A stretch of 64,000 nucleotides of DNA, from the NCBI RefSeq assembly GCF_000975055.1, contig NZ_BBRB01000003.1, positions 124,001 through 188,000 of the forward strand, written 5' to 3'. Origin of the DNA: Demequina sediminicola (GTDB lineage: Bacteria; Actinomycetota; Actinomycetes; Actinomycetales; Demequinaceae). Numbering within the stretch: the stretch's first letter is position 1; each line of letters opens with the position of its first letter. Of this stretch, positions 48,897 to 58,399 are shown in pieces. Below the pieces are notes generated by a model. It saw only the letters and a list, made by a program, of their open reading frames with translations, ran no database searches and was not told the origin of the DNA. The translations under genes and the position numbers were made by a program.

Positions 48897-49595
48897 CTAC
48901 GCCTGTGCAACAACAGCGCGATACGCCTCGGCGGCAGCAGCTTGCTCGGCATGCTTCTTCGCGGATCCCACACCGGTACCCAAGGCCACACCATCGACGG
49001 TCACGGTCGCGGTGAACGTGCGGGCATGGTCCGGTCCCTCACCCTCGCAGGTGTAGACCGGAGCGGGCCTGCCATGCTCGGAGCAGGCCTCTTGCAGCGA
49101 CGTCTTCCAATCGAGTGCCACGCCAGAGGTGGCGGCCGCCTTGAGGTGCCCGTCCACCAAGCGCAACACCATGTCGCGCGCTTCGTCAATTCCGTGGGTC
49201 AGATACACCGCGCCAATGAGCGCCTCGACGGCATCACACAGGATGGAGTCTTTGTCTGCGCCACCCGTGGTGCGCTCGCCCTTGCCCAACAAAATGCAGG
49301 GTCCAAGGTCGATTTCACGCGCTATTTCAGATAGCGCCTTCTGAGAAACCGTGGCGGCACGCATCTTCGCGAGGTCGCCTTCCGGCAAATCAGGGTGATC
49401 GCGGTAGAGGCGATCGGTGACCACGATGCCGAGCACGGAGTCACCTAGGAACTCGAGGCGCTCATTCGTGGGAAGCCCACCCGCCTCGTAGGCGAAAGAG
49501 CGATGAGTAAGCGCGAGGACAAGTAGTTCGGGGTCGATAGTGACACCGAGGCGCGCCACCAGGGCATCGGCTGCTGCCTGGCCCGGAATGGTCAC
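48897..49595 (-). CDS. rnc: Ribonuclease III
   Basis: A double-strand-specific endoribonuclease for rRNA and mRNA processing. The signature ERLEFLGDSVLGIVV, then KDSILCDAVEALIGAVYL with the second acidic pair, define the nuclease domain (about 1-150). The dsRNA-binding domain (about 160-230) has DWKTSLQEACSEHG and GSAKKHAEQAAAAEAY. It starts with GTG at 49595. Besides its housekeeping role it is the expected enzyme for cutting the tracrRNA:crRNA duplex of the type II-C system 2 kb away. Confidence 0.97.
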   Translation of the reverse strand: MTIPGQAAADALVARLGVTIDPELLVLALTHRSFAYEAGGLPTNERLEFLGDSVLGIVVTDRLYRDHPDLPEGDLAKMRAATVSQKALSEIAREIDLGPCILLGKGERTTGGADKDSILCDAVEALIGAVYLTHGIDEARDMVLRLVDGHLKAAATSGVALDWKTSLQEACSEHGRPAPVYTCEGEGPDHARTFTATVTVDGVALGTGVGSAKKHAEQAAAAEAYRAVVAQA

Positions 49596-51564: not shown

Positions 51565-51591
51565 GGCTCCAGAGTAACGACATGCTTCAGG

Positions 51592-51699
51592 CAAAAAGAA
51601 AACGGCCCCACGAGGGAGCCGTCTCATCTTGTGGAGTCCTGATCCAACAAGTTTCTCCTTGTTAGCGGCAGAGCCCATTTCCCAGAGCGATAGGTTGTG
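51592..51699 (-). ncRNA. tracrRNA of the type II-C CRISPR-Cas9 system
   Basis: Predicted RNA of about 108 nt. It begins at about 51699 with an anti-repeat (51661-51696) that pairs with the minus-strand repeat over about 33 bp, including 18 unbroken pairs (CCTATCGCTCTGGGAAAT side). A hairpin AACAAG-gagaaa-CUUGUU and a short middle section follow, then a terminator hairpin with stem ACGGCUCC/GGGGCCGU (51602-51622) and the run UUUUCUUUUU. Its -35 and -10 boxes are close to consensus. It is divergent from cas9, and its terminator ends 28 bp before the rsmD start. Confidence 0.92.
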
Positions 51700-51705
51700 A
51701 TGACT

Positions 51706-51734
51706 TTTATACACGCAGTGTCAGAGGGTGTCAA
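51706..51734 (-). promoter_or_regulatory. tracrRNA promoter
   Basis: On the minus strand TTGACA (51734-51729), a 17-bp spacer and TATAAA (51711-51706). This is a near-perfect sigma-70/SigA promoter, and the expected start at about 51699 is the first base of the anti-repeat region. Confidence 0.88.
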
Positions 51735-51741
51735 TACCCTC
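51724..51741. promoter_or_regulatory. Palindrome around the tracrRNA -35 box
   Basis: GAGGGT-gtcaat-ACCCTC is a perfect 6+6 bp inverted repeat whose centre is the -35 element of the tracrRNA promoter. A protein bound here would block tracrRNA and perhaps cas9, whose ATG is 53 bp further on. No regulator is known. Confidence 0.45.
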
Positions 51742-51794: not shown

Positions 51795-54700
51795 ATGACT
51801 GGCACTGACGCCACAGCACACTCGCACACGCCGTACCGCCTCGGGCTCGATGTAGGGACAGGATCTTTGGGTTGGGCCGTCGTTGAACTCGATACCGACG
51901 GCAATCCTGTCCGCATCGTGCGCACCGGCTCGCGGATCTATGGGAGCGGGCGCAAACCCAAGGACTTTTCATCGTTAGCGGCCGACCGGCGTGCCGCACG
52001 TCAGATGCGCAAGCAACGCGACCGCTATCTTCAACGCCGCACGCGCCTCATGCATGAACTGGTGGCCGCCGGTCTGATGCCCGAGGCCGAGGTGGAGCGG
52101 CAGAAGCTCAAGGATCTCAACCCCTACCTGCTACGCGCTCGTGGGGTTAAAGAGGAACTGACCGCCCACGAACTTGGCAGGGCTCTCTTTCATCTCCAGC
52201 AGCGCCGTGGCTTCAAGTCAAATCGCAAGACAGACCGCAAGGACGACGACCGCAGCGCGATGAAGAGCGCCATCGCATCGCTCCAATCCGACTTGGGCGA
52301 CGACACCCTTGGCACGTACATGTGGAAGCGGATCCAGAACGGCGAATCTGTGCGGTCCCGTCCGCGAAAGGTCGGGTCAAAGAACGAGTACGACTTTTAC
52401 GTGAACCGCGCGATGGTCGAGGATGAGTTCAATCAGTTGTGGGACTACCAAAGCCAGTCCCACGGCGACCTCCTCACGGACGAAGCCCGCATCCGCGTTC
52501 ATGACGCCATCTTTAGCCAACGTCCGCTCAAGCCGGTGGACCCGGGGCGCTGCACGTTCGAAACAGATCAGCGACGCGCACCGAAGGCACTCCCGAGCTC
52601 TCAACTGTTCCGCATCTACCAAGAACTTAACGCGATCAGAGTGATCGATCCGTTCTCATCAGACCAAGCAGATCGACCCCTGACGCGTCAGGAGCGCGAT
52701 GCCGGCGCATCGTTCCTCCTGGGCAGGGTGAAGGCCACCTTCCCTCAACTCAAGAAGGCGATGTTTGGGCCCACAAAGCTCCAACTCTCACTTGAGTACG
52801 GAGAACGCAAGAACATCCTGGGTGACGTCGTAGGAAGCGAGTTGCGCAAAGCGCAGCACATCGGCCCAGACTGGGAGACGTATGACCTCGCCACCCAGGA
52901 CCTCATCGTGACGATCCTGCTCGAGGCAGACACTGACGATGAAGTGATCGAGCGGCTTCAGGCTGAGTCGTCGCTATCGCTCGATCAGGTCCACGGCGCG
53001 CTTGAGGCACCACTCCCGGACGACTACCTACGGCTGAGCCATCGTGCGATTGGCAAGATCCTGCCTCATCTCAAGGATGAATGGAATGAAGAGGGCAATG
53101 CACCGGTGATGTATGACGCGGCCGTCCGTGCCGCGGGATACCAATCGCACTCAGAGTTCCACAGCGGTGTTCTTGAAGACACGCTCCCCTATTACGGGAA
53201 GGTGCTGAAGCGATACACGCAAGAGGTCTCCGGGAGCAGCCAAGCTGCTACGAACCCTGACGAATGGGAGTTCGGCAAGATCGCCAATCCGACCGTGCAC
53301 ATCGGCCTCAATCAGATCCGCACCGTCGTGAACTCACTGATTGACCGCTACGGCCTGCCCACACAGATTCATGTCGAGGTAGCCCGCGACTTGGGCCAGT
53401 CGGCTGAGGGAAGGCGTGAAGCAGCGTCCAACCGTGCCAAGAATGAACGAGCAAACGAAGCGCTCAACGCCCGCCTGACCGAACTGGGACAACGCACCAA
53501 CTTTGCCAATCGGGAGCGGCTGCGCCTCTACGATGAGATCTCAGTCCTCAATCACAGGTGTGTCCTGACAGGCATCCCCATCGAGATGTCGCGACTGTTC
53601 ACCAATGACTATCAGGTTGACCACATCCTGCCGTTCTCCCGGACCCTGGACGACTCGCGCGGAAACAAGATTCTGGTTCACCACACGGCCAATCAGTTCA
53701 AGGGCGCCCGGAGCCCCTTCGAGGCATACTCGGAGACGGCAGACTGGGATCACATCCTTCAACGCGCAAGCGATGCCTTTGGCGCTACGAGCCCCAAGTT
53801 CAAGCGCTTTTCTGCCGACGCCATGGACAGGTACTCGAACGGCGAGCAAGACTTCATCGCCCGCCAACTCAACGACACCAGCTACCTGGCACGAGTGACA
53901 CGCGAGTATCTAGGGAGCATCGTGGATCCCGACCGGATCCTAGCCACACCGGGCAGACTTACTTCGCTCTTGCGCCACCACTGGGGGCTCAATGGCCTGC
54001 TATCCGATGCCGCGGAGAAGAACCGCTCAGATCACCGGCACCACGCCATCGATGCCCTTGTCGTTGCACTCAGTGAGCGAGTAACTCTAAAGGCCGTCAC
54101 CGACGCCAACCGTCGTGCCGGTGACCAAGGCATCGAACGCTTGCTAGTCGACCTCCCCCAGCCGTGGGAGGGCTTTGCGGATCATGCCCGTGAGTCTGTT
54201 GATCGCATTGTGGTGTCTCACAAGCCAGATCACAATGAGAAAGGCCAGCTCCACGAAGAGACCGCCTATGGAGTCCTGGAAGGGCCCGACAAAAAGGGCA
54301 GGTTCCTCACCCGCAAGCGCATCACGGACCCTGCCAAAGGTGTGGTAGGCAGTTGGGAGCAACCCAAGTGGCGTGACGTCATTCCGCTGTACAGGCGCGG
54401 CGAGGGGCCAGACTCGACCCTTCCCTACAAGGCTTACATTGGCGGCTCCAACTACTGCATCGAGATCGTCCGAACTGCCAAGGGGAAATGGGCTGGGGAG
54501 GTAGTCTCCACGCACACCGCCAACACGGCCGAGTATCGCGCTTTCATGGCAGAGCCGGGCGCGTATCGCGCCCAGAGTTACGCCGGTGGTGACCTCGTCA
54601 TGCGGCTCATCGCCAATGACACCATCGCAATCGAAGTCGGCGATGCGGGTCGCCAGATCATGAGGCTGTGCCAGTTGGAGACGGTCGGAGCTATGTACTT

Positions 54701-54860
54701 CGCAAATGTGCGTGAAGGCAACGTCGCAGCACGTTCACGGGCTCGAGACAACGACTTTTCGTTGCTCAAGAAGGCGGCAAGCACACTTCAGCCACTCAAG
54801 GCTCGGAGAGTCTTTGTTGATCCCATTGGCAGGGTTTTTGACCCTGATTTCAAGGAGTAG
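51795..54860 (+). CDS. cas9: Cas9, compact type II-C
   Basis: RNA-guided DNA endonuclease of 1021 residues, in the small size class of the Campylobacter (984) and Neisseria (1082) enzymes. RuvC-I is YRLGLDVGTGSLGWAV (D19), the Arg-rich bridge helix is at about 61-90, and the recognition lobe at about 95-500. RuvC-II is IHVEVARDL (E528), HNH is YQVDHILPFSRTLDDS with catalytic H610 (N624 and N633 follow), and RuvC-III is HRHHAIDALVVAL (H750, D753). The last 230 residues would form the wedge/PAM-reading part. All catalytic residues are present. The ATG follows AGGGGGAG. cas1 starts 3 bp after the stop. No csn2 or cas4 is present, which with the size defines II-C. Confidence 0.98.
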   Translation: MTGTDATAHSHTPYRLGLDVGTGSLGWAVVELDTDGNPVRIVRTGSRIYGSGRKPKDFSSLAADRRAARQMRKQRDRYLQRRTRLMHELVAAGLMPEAEVERQKLKDLNPYLLRARGVKEELTAHELGRALFHLQQRRGFKSNRKTDRKDDDRSAMKSAIASLQSDLGDDTLGTYMWKRIQNGESVRSRPRKVGSKNEYDFYVNRAMVEDEFNQLWDYQSQSHGDLLTDEARIRVHDAIFSQRPLKPVDPGRCTFETDQRRAPKALPSSQLFRIYQELNAIRVIDPFSSDQADRPLTRQERDAGASFLLGRVKATFPQLKKAMFGPTKLQLSLEYGERKNILGDVVGSELRKAQHIGPDWETYDLATQDLIVTILLEADTDDEVIERLQAESSLSLDQVHGALEAPLPDDYLRLSHRAIGKILPHLKDEWNEEGNAPVMYDAAVRAAGYQSHSEFHSGVLEDTLPYYGKVLKRYTQEVSGSSQAATNPDEWEFGKIANPTVHIGLNQIRTVVNSLIDRYGLPTQIHVEVARDLGQSAEGRREAASNRAKNERANEALNARLTELGQRTNFANRERLRLYDEISVLNHRCVLTGIPIEMSRLFTNDYQVDHILPFSRTLDDSRGNKILVHHTANQFKGARSPFEAYSETADWDHILQRASDAFGATSPKFKRFSADAMDRYSNGEQDFIARQLNDTSYLARVTREYLGSIVDPDRILATPGRLTSLLRHHWGLNGLLSDAAEKNRSDHRHHAIDALVVALSERVTLKAVTDANRRAGDQGIERLLVDLPQPWEGFADHARESVDRIVVSHKPDHNEKGQLHEETAYGVLEGPDKKGRFLTRKRITDPAKGVVGSWEQPKWRDVIPLYRRGEGPDSTLPYKAYIGGSNYCIEIVRTAKGKWAGEVVSTHTANTAEYRAFMAEPGAYRAQSYAGGDLVMRLIANDTIAIEVGDAGRQIMRLCQLETVGAMYFANVREGNVAARSRARDNDFSLLKKAASTLQPLKARRVFVDPIGRVFDPDFKE

Positions 54861-54863
54861 GCG

Positions 54864-55790
54864 ATGATCGGGCGAGTAGTCGAGGTCGTCGAGGCTGACC
54901 GTCGCATAACGGTCGAATACGGGAATCTCATCATCTGCTCGTCCACCTTGAGGATTGGGCAAGTCGCCTTGGATGACATCCAATCGGTTGTCCTCAATCC
55001 CCACGGCGCCACGATCTCGGCGGGTGCGATTGCCGCGCTCGCCGAGCGTGGTGTGCCCGTAGTAGTGGTAGGTAGGAACTTTGCACCAATCGCAACAGTC
55101 TTGCCTATGTTTGGCCACCACGAGATCTCACGTCGCATCGAGATTCAGTCCGCTATCTCTCAACCAGCGAGGAAGCAGGCATGGAGGCAAATCGTCAGAG
55201 CCAAGATCGGAATGCAAGCCCTTGCCCTCGAGGCCTACGGCATCGACTCGGCGCCAGTGAGAAACCTAGTTGCACGGGTGAGGTCAGGAGATCCGGAGAA
55301 CCTCGAGGCCCAAGCTGCCAGGCTGTACTGGCGGCGGCTCTTCGGTCCGGACTTTCGACGGGATCACGACCTACCTGGCGTGAACGCCTTGCTGAACTAT
55401 GGCTACGCAATCATCCGATCTGCGACGGCACGATCGATCGTTGCGGTCGGGCTGCATCCGAGTCTGGGCGTTCATCATCGGAACACAGGCAACCCGATGT
55501 GTTTGGTTGATGATCTGATGGAGCCGTTCCGTCCCCTAGTAGATGTACGGGTCCGTGCAATCGTCGAAGAGGACCCTGATGCGTGCGTGGAGCCATCAAC
55601 CAAGAAGATGCTCGTGGCGATCCTCAGCACTGACGTTTCGCTGGCGACAGGGTCCTCCCCTGTCTCCCTTGTGATCCACAAGGCTGCACATTCGTTGGTG
55701 CAGTACCACCTTGGCGAGTCCAAGCGACTCGCGTTCCCGGACCGTGCTTGTGAAGAGACTATGCAAGCGCTCTCTGAGGCATACCAATGA
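54864..55790 (+). CDS. cas1: Cas1 integrase
   Basis: Catalytic subunit of the Cas1-Cas2 spacer integrase, 308 residues. It has an N-terminal beta domain (about 1-85) and a helical catalytic domain. The expected metal ligands are E148 in NLEAQAARLYWR, H205 in GLHPSLGVHHRN and E220 in LVDDLMEPFRP, matching the pattern of type II Cas1 proteins. It starts 3 bp after cas9 and overlaps cas2 (ATGA), so the three genes are one operon. Codon choice looks looser than in the neighbouring ribosomal and repair genes. Confidence 0.97.
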   Translation: MIGRVVEVVEADRRITVEYGNLIICSSTLRIGQVALDDIQSVVLNPHGATISAGAIAALAERGVPVVVVGRNFAPIATVLPMFGHHEISRRIEIQSAISQPARKQAWRQIVRAKIGMQALALEAYGIDSAPVRNLVARVRSGDPENLEAQAARLYWRRLFGPDFRRDHDLPGVNALLNYGYAIIRSATARSIVAVGLHPSLGVHHRNTGNPMCLVDDLMEPFRPLVDVRVRAIVEEDPDACVEPSTKKMLVAILSTDVSLATGSSPVSLVIHKAAHSLVQYHLGESKRLAFPDRACEETMQALSEAYQ

Positions 55791-56116
55791 GCGAGCTATC
55801 GGGGTACAGACTCATGTGGCTAGTTGCACTGTTTGATCTACCGGTCAGGACCAAGGCTGAGCGTCGTGAAGCGACTCTCTACAGGAAGCGCCTACTCGAG
55901 CAAGGATTCTCGATGGCACAGCTCTCGGTATACATGAAGTTCTGTCGCGACAAGGAGCAGTCGGAGATCATCATCAGGAAACTCTCTCAAGATGTTCCTG
56001 AGGGCGGGCGGGTCGACATACTCATGATCACTGACAGGCAGTACGCTGGGATCGTCACAGTACGTGACAACGAGCGAGTCAGACGGAAGAACCCGTCGCA
56101 ACTCTCGTTGTTCTGA
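55787..56116 (+). CDS. cas2: Cas2, adaptation subunit
   Basis: A 109-residue partner that bridges two Cas1 dimers. The ferredoxin-like start YRLMWLVALFDLPVRTKAERREA carries the conserved Asp (about D17), and the remaining strands follow (FSMAQLSVYMKFC, RVDILMITDRQYAGIV). The last five residues are QLSLF, identical to the consensus of beta-sliding-clamp binding peptides, exposed at the C-terminus after a basic stretch. Codons such as CTA and AGG are frequent. The leader hairpin and the array follow after 26-72 bp. Confidence 0.96.
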   Translation: MSELSGYRLMWLVALFDLPVRTKAERREATLYRKRLLEQGFSMAQLSVYMKFCRDKEQSEIIIRKLSQDVPEGGRVDILMITDRQYAGIVTVRDNERVRRKNPSQLSLF

Positions 56117-56142: not shown

Positions 56143-56188
56143 AGATGGCGGCGAACCTCCCGTTCTACCAGGAGTTTCACCGCCATCT
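56143..56188. promoter_or_regulatory. Long hairpin abutting the first CRISPR repeat (putative leader)
   Basis: AGATGGCGGCGAA (56143-56155) and TTCACCGCCATCT (56176-56188) form a 13-bp inverted repeat with a single mismatch; an inner CTCC/GGAG extends it. The right arm ends at the base before the first repeat. There is no T-run on either side. It may mark the integration leader, bend DNA for Cas1-Cas2, or end minus-strand array transcripts. Confidence 0.6.
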
Positions 56189-58399
56189 AGCCTATCGCTC
56201 TGGGAAATGAGCTCTGGCCGCAACTTCATGCACGAAGTCCTCCGCCGCATGTCCAGCCTATCGCTCTGGGAAATGAGCTCTGGCCGCAACAGGGACTCCA
56301 TCGCATCCAAAGACCTAGAGAGCCTATCGCTCTGGGAAATGAGCTCTGGCCGCAACTGGGAGCCGAGACCCCCTGGGGTATGGCTAAGCCTATCGCTCTG
56401 GGAAATGAGCTCTGGCCGCAACGCAATGGTGGTCGTGTCCTTGAAAGCCAAGAGCCTATCGCTCTGGGAAATGAGCTCTGGCCGCAACGCTTCGCGCTCC
56501 AGCCGTTCGGCTTCGTCAGCCTATCGCTCTGGGAAATGAGCTCTGGCCGCAACCCGCATTGCACGCGGGGCGTGAACGTCTCGAGCCTATCGCTCTGGGA
56601 AATGAGCTCTGGCCGCAACTCCAACGCACTGCGCCGCATCGTCGTGTCAAGCCTATCGCTCTGGGAAATGAGCTCTGGCCGCAACCGAGAATCCCTGGTA
56701 GCGCTTCTGGTGAAGAGCCTATCGCTCTGGGAAATGAGCTCTGGCCGCAACATCCGTAACCTCGTACAGACCGCGAGCGAGAGCCTATCGCTCTGGGAAA
56801 TGAGCTCTGGCCGCAACTAGCCGGTGCCGTTGGGTTCAATCGTGAAAAGCCTATCGCTCTGGGAAATGAGCTCTGGCCGCAACCTCAAGGACCACTACGA
56901 AAGCCCCGTGTAGAGCCTATCGCTCTGGGAAATGAGCTCTGGCCGCAACGCTATCGTGGTCGGCATCAAGTGGCTGCGTAGCCTATCGCTCTGGGAAATG
57001 AGCTCTGGCCGCAACATCAACGAGTCCGGCTACAACGCAATGGTCAGCCTATCGCTCTGGGAAATGAGCTCTGGCCGCAACGTGTTGGCTCGAGGCGTGC
57101 GCGGGCCTGGAGCCTATCGCTCTGGGAAATGAGCTCTGGCCGCAACGTTCTCGAGGGACGCTGGGGGTGGCGTGGAGCCTATCGCTCTGGGAAATGAGCT
57201 CTGGCCGCAACCGGTCCTTTCACTTCCTTGTGGACCTGGTAAGCCTATCGCTCTGGGAAATGAGCTCTGGCCGCAACCACCACCGTGACCTAGCGCGAGG
57301 TGGAGCAAGCCTATCGCTCTGGGAAATGAGCTCTGGCCGCAACTGCAGATAGCCACGCGAAGATCACGGTCATAGCCTATCGCTCTGGGAAATGAGCTCT
57401 GGCCGCAACCTATGCGGGCGTTGCCGATTGGAAGCCAAAAGCCTATCGCTCTGGGAAATGAGCTCTGGCCGCAACAGCGCCCACTAGGTGCCATTGCCGG
57501 TTCTCAGCCTATCGCTCTGGGAAATGAGCTCTGGCCGCAACCGATCCATCTCCGCTCGCACGTCGGCGCTAAGCCTATCGCTCTGGGAAATGAGCTCTGG
57601 CCGCAACGCCGGTCCGCATGCGCAGTCGTCGCCTTCGAGCCTATCGCTCTGGGAAATGAGCTCTGGCCGCAACAAGGTGAGTAGCAAGAAGCGCCCGATT
57701 GGAAGCCTATCGCTCTGGGAAATGAGCTCTGGCCGCAACACGGTGACGGTTGCCGTGTTGAAGTCGTCGAGCCTATCGCTCTGGGAAATGAGCTCTGGCC
57801 GCAACGACCGACTCGCAGCACTCGAAGTTAGCGCCAGCCTATCGCTCTGGGAAATGAGCTCTGGCCGCAACCGTCCCGCCATCGACCTTGCCGCCGCAGT
57901 AAGCCTATCGCTCTGGGAAATGAGCTCTGGCCGCAACTGGAGCCACGCGCGCCCACAATGGAGTGGGAGCCTATCGCTCTGGGAAATGAGCTCTGGCCGC
58001 AACCGCGGCGGCATCAGTCACGGGGATGACGTCAGCCTATCGCTTTGGGAAATGAGCTCTGGCCGCAACAAGGCCGCGAAGGTTGAGGCGTTGCTGGGTA
58101 GCCTATCGCTCTGGGAAATGAGCTCTGGCCGCAACCGCGGCGGCATCAGTCACGGGGATGACGTCAGCCTATCGCTCTGGGAAATGAGCTCTGGCCGCAA
58201 CTTGATTCCAGACACGGGCATGCTTCCGTGAAGCCTATCGCTCTGGGAAATGAGCTCTGGCCGCAACTGCGACGAGCGTGTTGAGTAGCGCGTCCACAGC
58301 CTATCGCTCTGGGAAATGAGCTCTGGCCGCAACTTAGAGTCTGACGTGCTCGATGATCTGGTGAGCCTAGCGCTCTGGGAAATGAGCCCTAGCTACATC
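56189..58399 (-). CRISPR. Type II-C CRISPR array, 34 repeats and 33 spacers
   Basis: The 36-bp repeats begin (plus strand) AGCCTATCGCTCTGGG and end CTCTGGCCGCAAC. They start at 56189 and recur every 66 bp, except for three 65-bp steps, so there are 30 spacers of 30 bp and three of 29 bp (after the repeats at 56453, 57046 and 57111). The repeat at 58034 has one C-to-T change. The last repeat, at 58364, is decayed in its right third. Spacers 58004-58033 and 58136-58165 are identical. Pairing with the tracrRNA shows that crRNA comes from the minus strand. I found no spacer match inside the window. Confidence 0.98.

What the first reader, a model, noticed from the sequence alone, without database searches (positions are those of the whole stretch)
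51592..51734. tracrRNA can be read directly, with a near-consensus promoter and a clear terminator
The minus strand shows TTGACA-N17-TATAAA, a start at about 51699, an anti-repeat with about 33 bp pairing to the repeat (one bulge on each strand, one G-U), an AACAAG/CUUGUU hairpin and an 8-bp terminator stem with UUUUCUUUUU. Together they predict an RNA of about 108 nt, close in size to known II-C tracrRNAs.
Basis: partly seen in the sequence, partly recalled or inferred. Interest (0 to 1): 0.7.

Follow-up and report, generated by a model that had tools for sequence, protein, structure and literature searches.

The report
Ordinary tracrRNA beside Cas9 genes

Summary
On the minus strand there is TTGACA-N17-TATAAA, the only match of 11/12 or better in the window; an anti-repeat that pairs 33 bp with the array repeat; and a terminator. 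They predict an RNA of about 106 nt (about 51698 to 51593). It sits divergently upstream of an apparently intact cas9-cas1-cas2 operon with a 34-repeat array, the usual II-C layout. The same element sits in the same place in congener G012 and, by anti-repeat or motif, upstream of most cas9 relatives fetched. It is a tracrRNA: a new member of a known kind, without RNA evidence.

One correction. Folding with the anti-repeat blocked gives GGAG-N18-CUCC (51658-51633).

Side observations: the terminator lies about 25 nt upstream of rsmD, near an apparent insertion boundary; the oldest repeat is decayed.

The parts
51729..51734 (-). -35 hexamer TTGACA of the tracrRNA promoter
   Evidence: sequence; best of the window, 11/12 with the -10
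51706..51711 (-). -10 hexamer TATAAA, 17 nt after the -35
51698..51701 (-). predicted transcription start (purine 5-8 nt after the -10)
   Evidence: inference from promoter spacing; no RNA data
51661..51694 (-). anti-repeat, 33 bp with the array repeat, one unpaired nt on each strand
   Evidence: duplexfold -63.2 kcal/mol; local alignment score 27
51646..51663 (-).
   Evidence: pair probabilities 0.996-0.999 free; absent from the MFE fold with the anti-repeat blocked
51633..51658 (-). stem-loop 1 (GGAG...CUCC with inner CUUG/CAGG), the conserved form next to the duplex
   Evidence: cofold; covariation in 11 loci; same stem with a U to C change in L011
51623..51632 (-). linker ACAAGAUGAG, similar in relatives
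   Evidence: listing of 11 loci
51602..51622 (-). terminator stem-loop ACGGCUCC-CUCGU-GGGGCCGU
   Evidence: position
51593..51602 (-). U-rich tail TTTTCTTTTT (first T belongs to the stem)
51795..54860 (+). cas9, 1021 aa, HNH and RuvC-III domains found
   Evidence: TIGR01865 574 bits; PF18541, PF13395
54864..55790 (+). cas1, type II
   Evidence: TIGR03639 234 bits; PADLOC Cas1_II
55787..56116 (+). cas2
   Evidence: TIGR01573 52 bits; PADLOC Cas2_II
56189..58399 (-). CRISPR array, 34 repeats of 36 nt; crRNA sense is the minus strand
58364..58399 (-). decayed oldest ('extra') repeat, 6 of 36 positions changed, 5 of them in the half that pairs next to the guide
   Evidence: duplex -49.0 against -63.2 kcal/mol
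48897..49595 (-). rnc, host RNase III expected to cut the repeat:anti-repeat duplex
   Evidence: TIGR02191 227 bits; role inferred from established type II biology

Best explanation
The segment is the tracrRNA gene of a complete type II-C CRISPR-Cas9 system. A sigma-70-like promoter starts an RNA of about 106 nt a few nucleotides before the anti-repeat. The anti-repeat pairs along nearly the whole crRNA repeat; host RNase III trims the duplex; the remaining 3' part folds as stem-loop 1 (GGAG...CUCC) plus the terminator hairpin and anchors the dual RNA in Cas9. Shown here: promoter and terminator sequences, duplex complementarity, conservation of position and orientation, covariation of stem-loop 1. 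Inferred: transcription, trimming, Cas9 binding and target cutting.
For: Apparently intact cas9-cas1-cas2 and array next door. Anti-repeat unique outside the array and pairing 33 bp with the repeat. Best promoter match of the window at the expected distance. Terminator. Congener G012 (Cas9 65% identical) carries the same tracrRNA in the same divergent place with TTGACA conserved, and its tracrRNA pairs with the repeat at the end of its contig C30. 8 of 14 loci have a detectable array; in all 8 the anti-repeat lies just upstream of cas9, 7 of 8 on the opposite strand. Stem-loop 1: 31 of 33 standard pairs in 11 loci; 0 of 20,000 column shuffles and 4 of 20,000 whole-arm shuffles reach this; slid versions reach 7-19 of 33. 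RNase III gene in the window.
Against: No RNA data. No Rfam family matches the segment at its gathering score, so the assignment rests on context and complementarity. The -10 of G012 at the same spacing is weak (CAGGAT) and most relatives have poor -10 matches. In 4 of 15 loci I did not place a tracrRNA tail of this shape (L049, L052 not located; L053 divergent; L054 anti-repeat on the other strand). The anchoring rule for stem-loop 1 was framed after seeing the sequences, and one row (L043) fails it. With near-duplicates removed, 47 of 20,000 whole-arm shuffles reach the observed 25 of 27.
Confidence: 0.95

Rival explanations
1. One reading: the functional tracrRNA keeps the AACAAG/CUUGUU hairpin as the stem next to the duplex.
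For: It is the predicted fold of free tracrRNA, and G012 keeps a partial version (5 of 6 pairs).
Against: AAC is shared with the anti-repeat, so full crRNA pairing excludes it. All 6 pairs form only in this window; by best match 4 of the other 10 loci reach 5 of 6 and 6 reach 3 or 4. In G012 even the free fold chooses stem-loop 1.
Confidence: 0.07
2. The segment is a decayed orphan repeat, not a transcribed tracrRNA.
For: It is about 90% identical to array repeats over the anti-repeat.
Against: It lies in inverse orientation to the array, with promoter, terminator, downstream stem-loops and conserved position in other species.
Confidence: 0.02
3. The promoter mainly serves the rsmD gene downstream, with the tracrRNA as its leader.
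For: rsmD starts (GTG 51567) about 25 nt after the T-rich run on the same strand, leaving no room for a promoter of its own between them; alignment with a CRISPR-free congener ends near there.
Against: A strong terminator lies between, and G012 has the same tracrRNA with about 2.9 kb before rsmD on the same strand. Readthrough to rsmD is compatible with a tracrRNA role rather than exclusive.
Confidence: 0.03

Closest known systems
tracrRNA of type II-C CRISPR-Cas9 (Neisseria/Pasteurella-like branch)
   Same: Recognised by anti-repeat, promoter and terminator; array transcribed against the cas operon; cas9-cas1-cas2 only, as described in passages of PMC3936727. The best solved relatives of this Cas9 are Cas9 chains of 1082-1095 residues.
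   Different: Cas9 only about 34-39% identical to the nearest named relatives outside the genus; UAACAAG motif with an unpaired U next to the first three repeat bases, which I did not see named in the passages I read.
tracrRNAs of Cas9 relatives on proteobacterial plasmids (Limnohabitans, Azospirillum, Novosphingobium, Bosea, Sphingobium, Pseudosulfitobacter, Marinibacterium)
   Same: Position upstream of cas9, UAACAAG-like motif, stem-loop 1 starting at its G, linker, terminator.
   Different: Loop sequence and stem length differ; anti-repeats of some are shorter or interrupted; these tracrRNAs are my predictions too.
Extra-repeat (ecrRNA) suppression in II-C arrays (PMC12080349: abstract, introduction, part of methods and one results section read)
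   Same: The oldest repeat here is mutated where it would pair next to the guide and pairs more weakly with the tracrRNA, as that paper reports for many II-C systems.
   Different: Nothing beyond that paper for this window.

Membership tests
tracrRNA | anti-repeat complementary to the repeat of the same system, outside the array | tested here: met
   33 bp; unique in genome outside the array
tracrRNA | promoter and terminator on the strand that yields the complementary RNA | tested here: met
   (sequence only)
tracrRNA | conserved stem-loop(s) 3' of the anti-repeat | tested here: met
   31 of 33 pairs in 11 loci
tracrRNA | transcribed, co-processed with crRNA by RNase III, bound by Cas9 | not testable with these tools
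   no RNA or protein experiment possible; rnc is present
type II-C CRISPR-Cas | cas9, cas1, cas2 without csn2 or cas4 | tested here: met
   cas9-cas1-cas2, then the array and a cellulase gene; rsmD and coaD on the other side; not every small ORF was scanned
type II-C CRISPR-Cas | array transcribed against the cas operon, oldest repeat at the cas-distal end | tested here: met
   sense inferred from the anti-repeat; decayed repeat at 58364; transcription itself not shown
type II-C CRISPR-Cas | Cas9 in the II-C branch of a tree | not tested
   no tree built; only profile and PDB-sequence matches

The most novel reading that the evidence does not exclude
In this species the free tracrRNA is held in an inactive fold: the AACAAG/CUUGUU hairpin covers the end of the anti-repeat and prevents stem-loop 1. 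Pairing with crRNA would open it and let stem-loop 1 form, so that Cas9 would load only complete dual RNA: a crRNA-triggered switch. Against it: the congener's free RNA is predicted to fold into stem-loop 1 directly.
Probability: 0.05. Interest if true: 0.5.

Novelty: new member of a known kind. Interest (0 to 1): 0.2.

Why it matters
It completes the parts list of a Cas9 system that is rare in its genus and only about 34-39% identical to the nearest named relatives, so that the dual guide RNA of this Cas9 can be specified and tested. It also shows that the stem-loop next to the duplex should be taken from comparison of relatives, not from folding the free RNA.

Tried and rejected
Rfam gave nothing usable on the segment: one sub-threshold match to a plasmid antisense RNA over the terminator, E 0.95, 21 bits where 50 are needed, and only a tRNA at gathering score in the whole window. 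The pattern search of the viral collection found no relative of this Cas9. The array found no phage match, so no target is known. Weak Cas9 matches elsewhere in the phylum (8 of 395 other genomes) were not used for the RNA comparison; looking for the motif in ten loci gave scattered single hits that I did not take further. A search for papers naming Demequina (a guess from memory at the genus, not established by any search) with Cas9 listed two unrelated papers. A search on tracrRNA refolding listed papers, none opened.

Rows dropped before the stem-loop count: of 15 loci (window, L011, L009, L043-L054), L049 and L052 (no tracrRNA located in the 300 nt read), L053 (divergent motif; by eye it has GGG...CCC after AAG) and L054 (anti-repeat on the other strand). 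L045, L046, L047 and L051 have no array in the stretch fetched, so their tracrRNAs rest on the motif alone. The promoter-like hit printed for L051, and the top hits for L045 and L047, overlap the motif or lie after it and are not counted as promoters.

Full report
What is there. On both strands of the 64 kb this is the only promoter-like site with at least 11 of 12 consensus matches; three others reach 10; block shuffles give 0.15 on average at 11 or more. The general scanner missed it because its rule requires T as the last base of the -10. The terminator is the longest-stemmed of the eight the scanner lists. A whole-genome search with the region finds only itself and the array, and the 18-nt core of the repeat occurs 34 times in array sense and once in reverse, the reverse one being this anti-repeat.

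Surroundings. cas9 (51795-54860), cas1 (54864-55790) and cas2 (55787-56116) follow on the plus strand, confirmed by NCBIfam, PADLOC and Pfam models, then an array of 34 repeats of 36 nt. The oldest repeat, at 58364-58399, differs at 6 of 36 positions, five of them in the half nearest the guide, and pairs with the tracrRNA at -49.0 instead of -63.2 kcal/mol. This matches what Feussner et al. report for many II-C arrays, in which new spacers enter at the last repeat and the first, extra repeat is often mutated (PMC12080349; abstract, introduction, part of methods and one results section read). An RNase III gene lies at 48897-49595.

Duplex. The crRNA-sense repeat (minus strand) pairs with the anti-repeat over 33 bp with one unpaired nucleotide on each strand. 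Folding the full repeat, or its first 24 nt, together with the tracrRNA leaves a 3' part that folds as GGAG-AAA-CUUG-UUGGAU-CAGG-A-CUCC followed by the terminator. With the anti-repeat blocked, the GGAG/CUCC stem has probability 0.75.

Relatives. Within the genus only 2 of 44 genomes contain the repeat core, this one and G012. G012's Cas9 is 65% identical. Its tracrRNA (L011) has the same place, orientation, TTGACA and overall sequence, and a U to C change that turns a G-U into a G-C pair in the inner part of stem-loop 1. Outside the genus the best Cas9 relatives found are a gammaproteobacterial contig (L009, 39%) and proteobacterial plasmids (best 39%; one search lists all 59 records). Of 14 loci examined for arrays (window, L009, L043-L054), 8 have one, and all 8 have an anti-repeat just upstream of cas9, 7 on the opposite strand and one (L054) on the same strand. 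In 11 of 15 loci (now with L011) the anti-repeat ends in UAACAAG or a close variant. Taking the 5' arm as the bases from its G on, and the 3' arm by a fixed rule (ending 5 nt before the AT of the linker), 31 of 33 pairs are standard; no column shuffle of 20,000 and 4 of 20,000 whole-arm shuffles do as well; slid arms give 7 to 19 of 33. Without the near-duplicates L011 and L047 it is 25 of 27, reached by 47 of 20,000 whole-arm shuffles. The rule was framed after looking at the sequences, and L043 does not satisfy it. In G012 the free RNA is predicted to fold directly into stem-loop 1, which speaks against a conserved switch.

Promoters of relatives. TTGAC is seen at a fitting distance before the anti-repeat or motif in L011, L044, L045, L047, L048 and L050, that is 6 of 10 relatives scanned; the -10 matches are mostly weak.

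Known kind. Passages of Fonfara et al. (PMC3936727) describe II-C loci as cas9-cas1-cas2 with the array transcribed opposite to the cas operon, and note that the Pasteurella multocida tracrRNA was itself predicted from a promoter and a terminator. Passages of the Cas9 ortholog catalogue (PMC7606464) describe finding tracrRNAs by anti-repeat, fold and terminator, and clusters of related folds that go with Cas9 clades. The present case follows that pattern, so I call it a new member of a known kind. Whether the UAACAAG motif with the unpaired U has been described I cannot say: I read only the passages and sections named here.

Insertion boundary. Alignment with CRISPR-free congener G043 runs through rsmD and stops at about window position 51580, a dozen bases beyond the T-rich run of the tracrRNA. 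On the other side of the array lie a cellulase gene and recG; in G043 recG and a short reading frame that by eye resembles the start of the cellulase gene stand directly before rsmD. In G012 a contig with recG-like sequence ends in a repeat, and rsmD lies further along the tracrRNA contig on the same strand. Both systems therefore appear to sit between recG and rsmD.

Limits.

Noticed in passing
L016 (G012 contig C30 end), 1434-1521: Just before the repeat at this contig end lies an inverted half-repeat about 30 nt upstream; RNA folding of the last 100 nt gives one long hairpin with the repeat at -57.8 kcal/mol. A leader/extra-repeat hairpin like this is known from II-A and was said not to be found in II-C (PMC12080349 introduction); it could also be a contig-end artefact.
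   Followed up: partly
window 51567-51600: The tracrRNA terminator lies about 25 nt upstream of the rsmD start, near where alignment with CRISPR-free congener G043 ends, so rsmD may have lost its own promoter and depend on readthrough.
   Followed up: partly
window 56143-56188: A long inverted repeat lies directly between cas2 and the newest repeat, where array transcripts would end and new spacers would enter; it has no T-run.
   Followed up: no
window 58004-58033 and 58136-58165: Two spacers in the old part of the array are identical over at least 29 nt, separated by one other unit.
   Followed up: no
window 51724-51741: An inverted repeat GAGGGT-N6-ACCCTC overlaps the -35 of the tracrRNA promoter (by eye); it is not obvious in G012 and could be an operator or chance.
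   Followed up: no
G000 and G012 in genus g1: Only 2 of 44 genomes of the genus hold this repeat, and both systems appear to lie between recG and rsmD, though the nearest Cas9 relatives found outside the genus are proteobacterial.
   Followed up: partly
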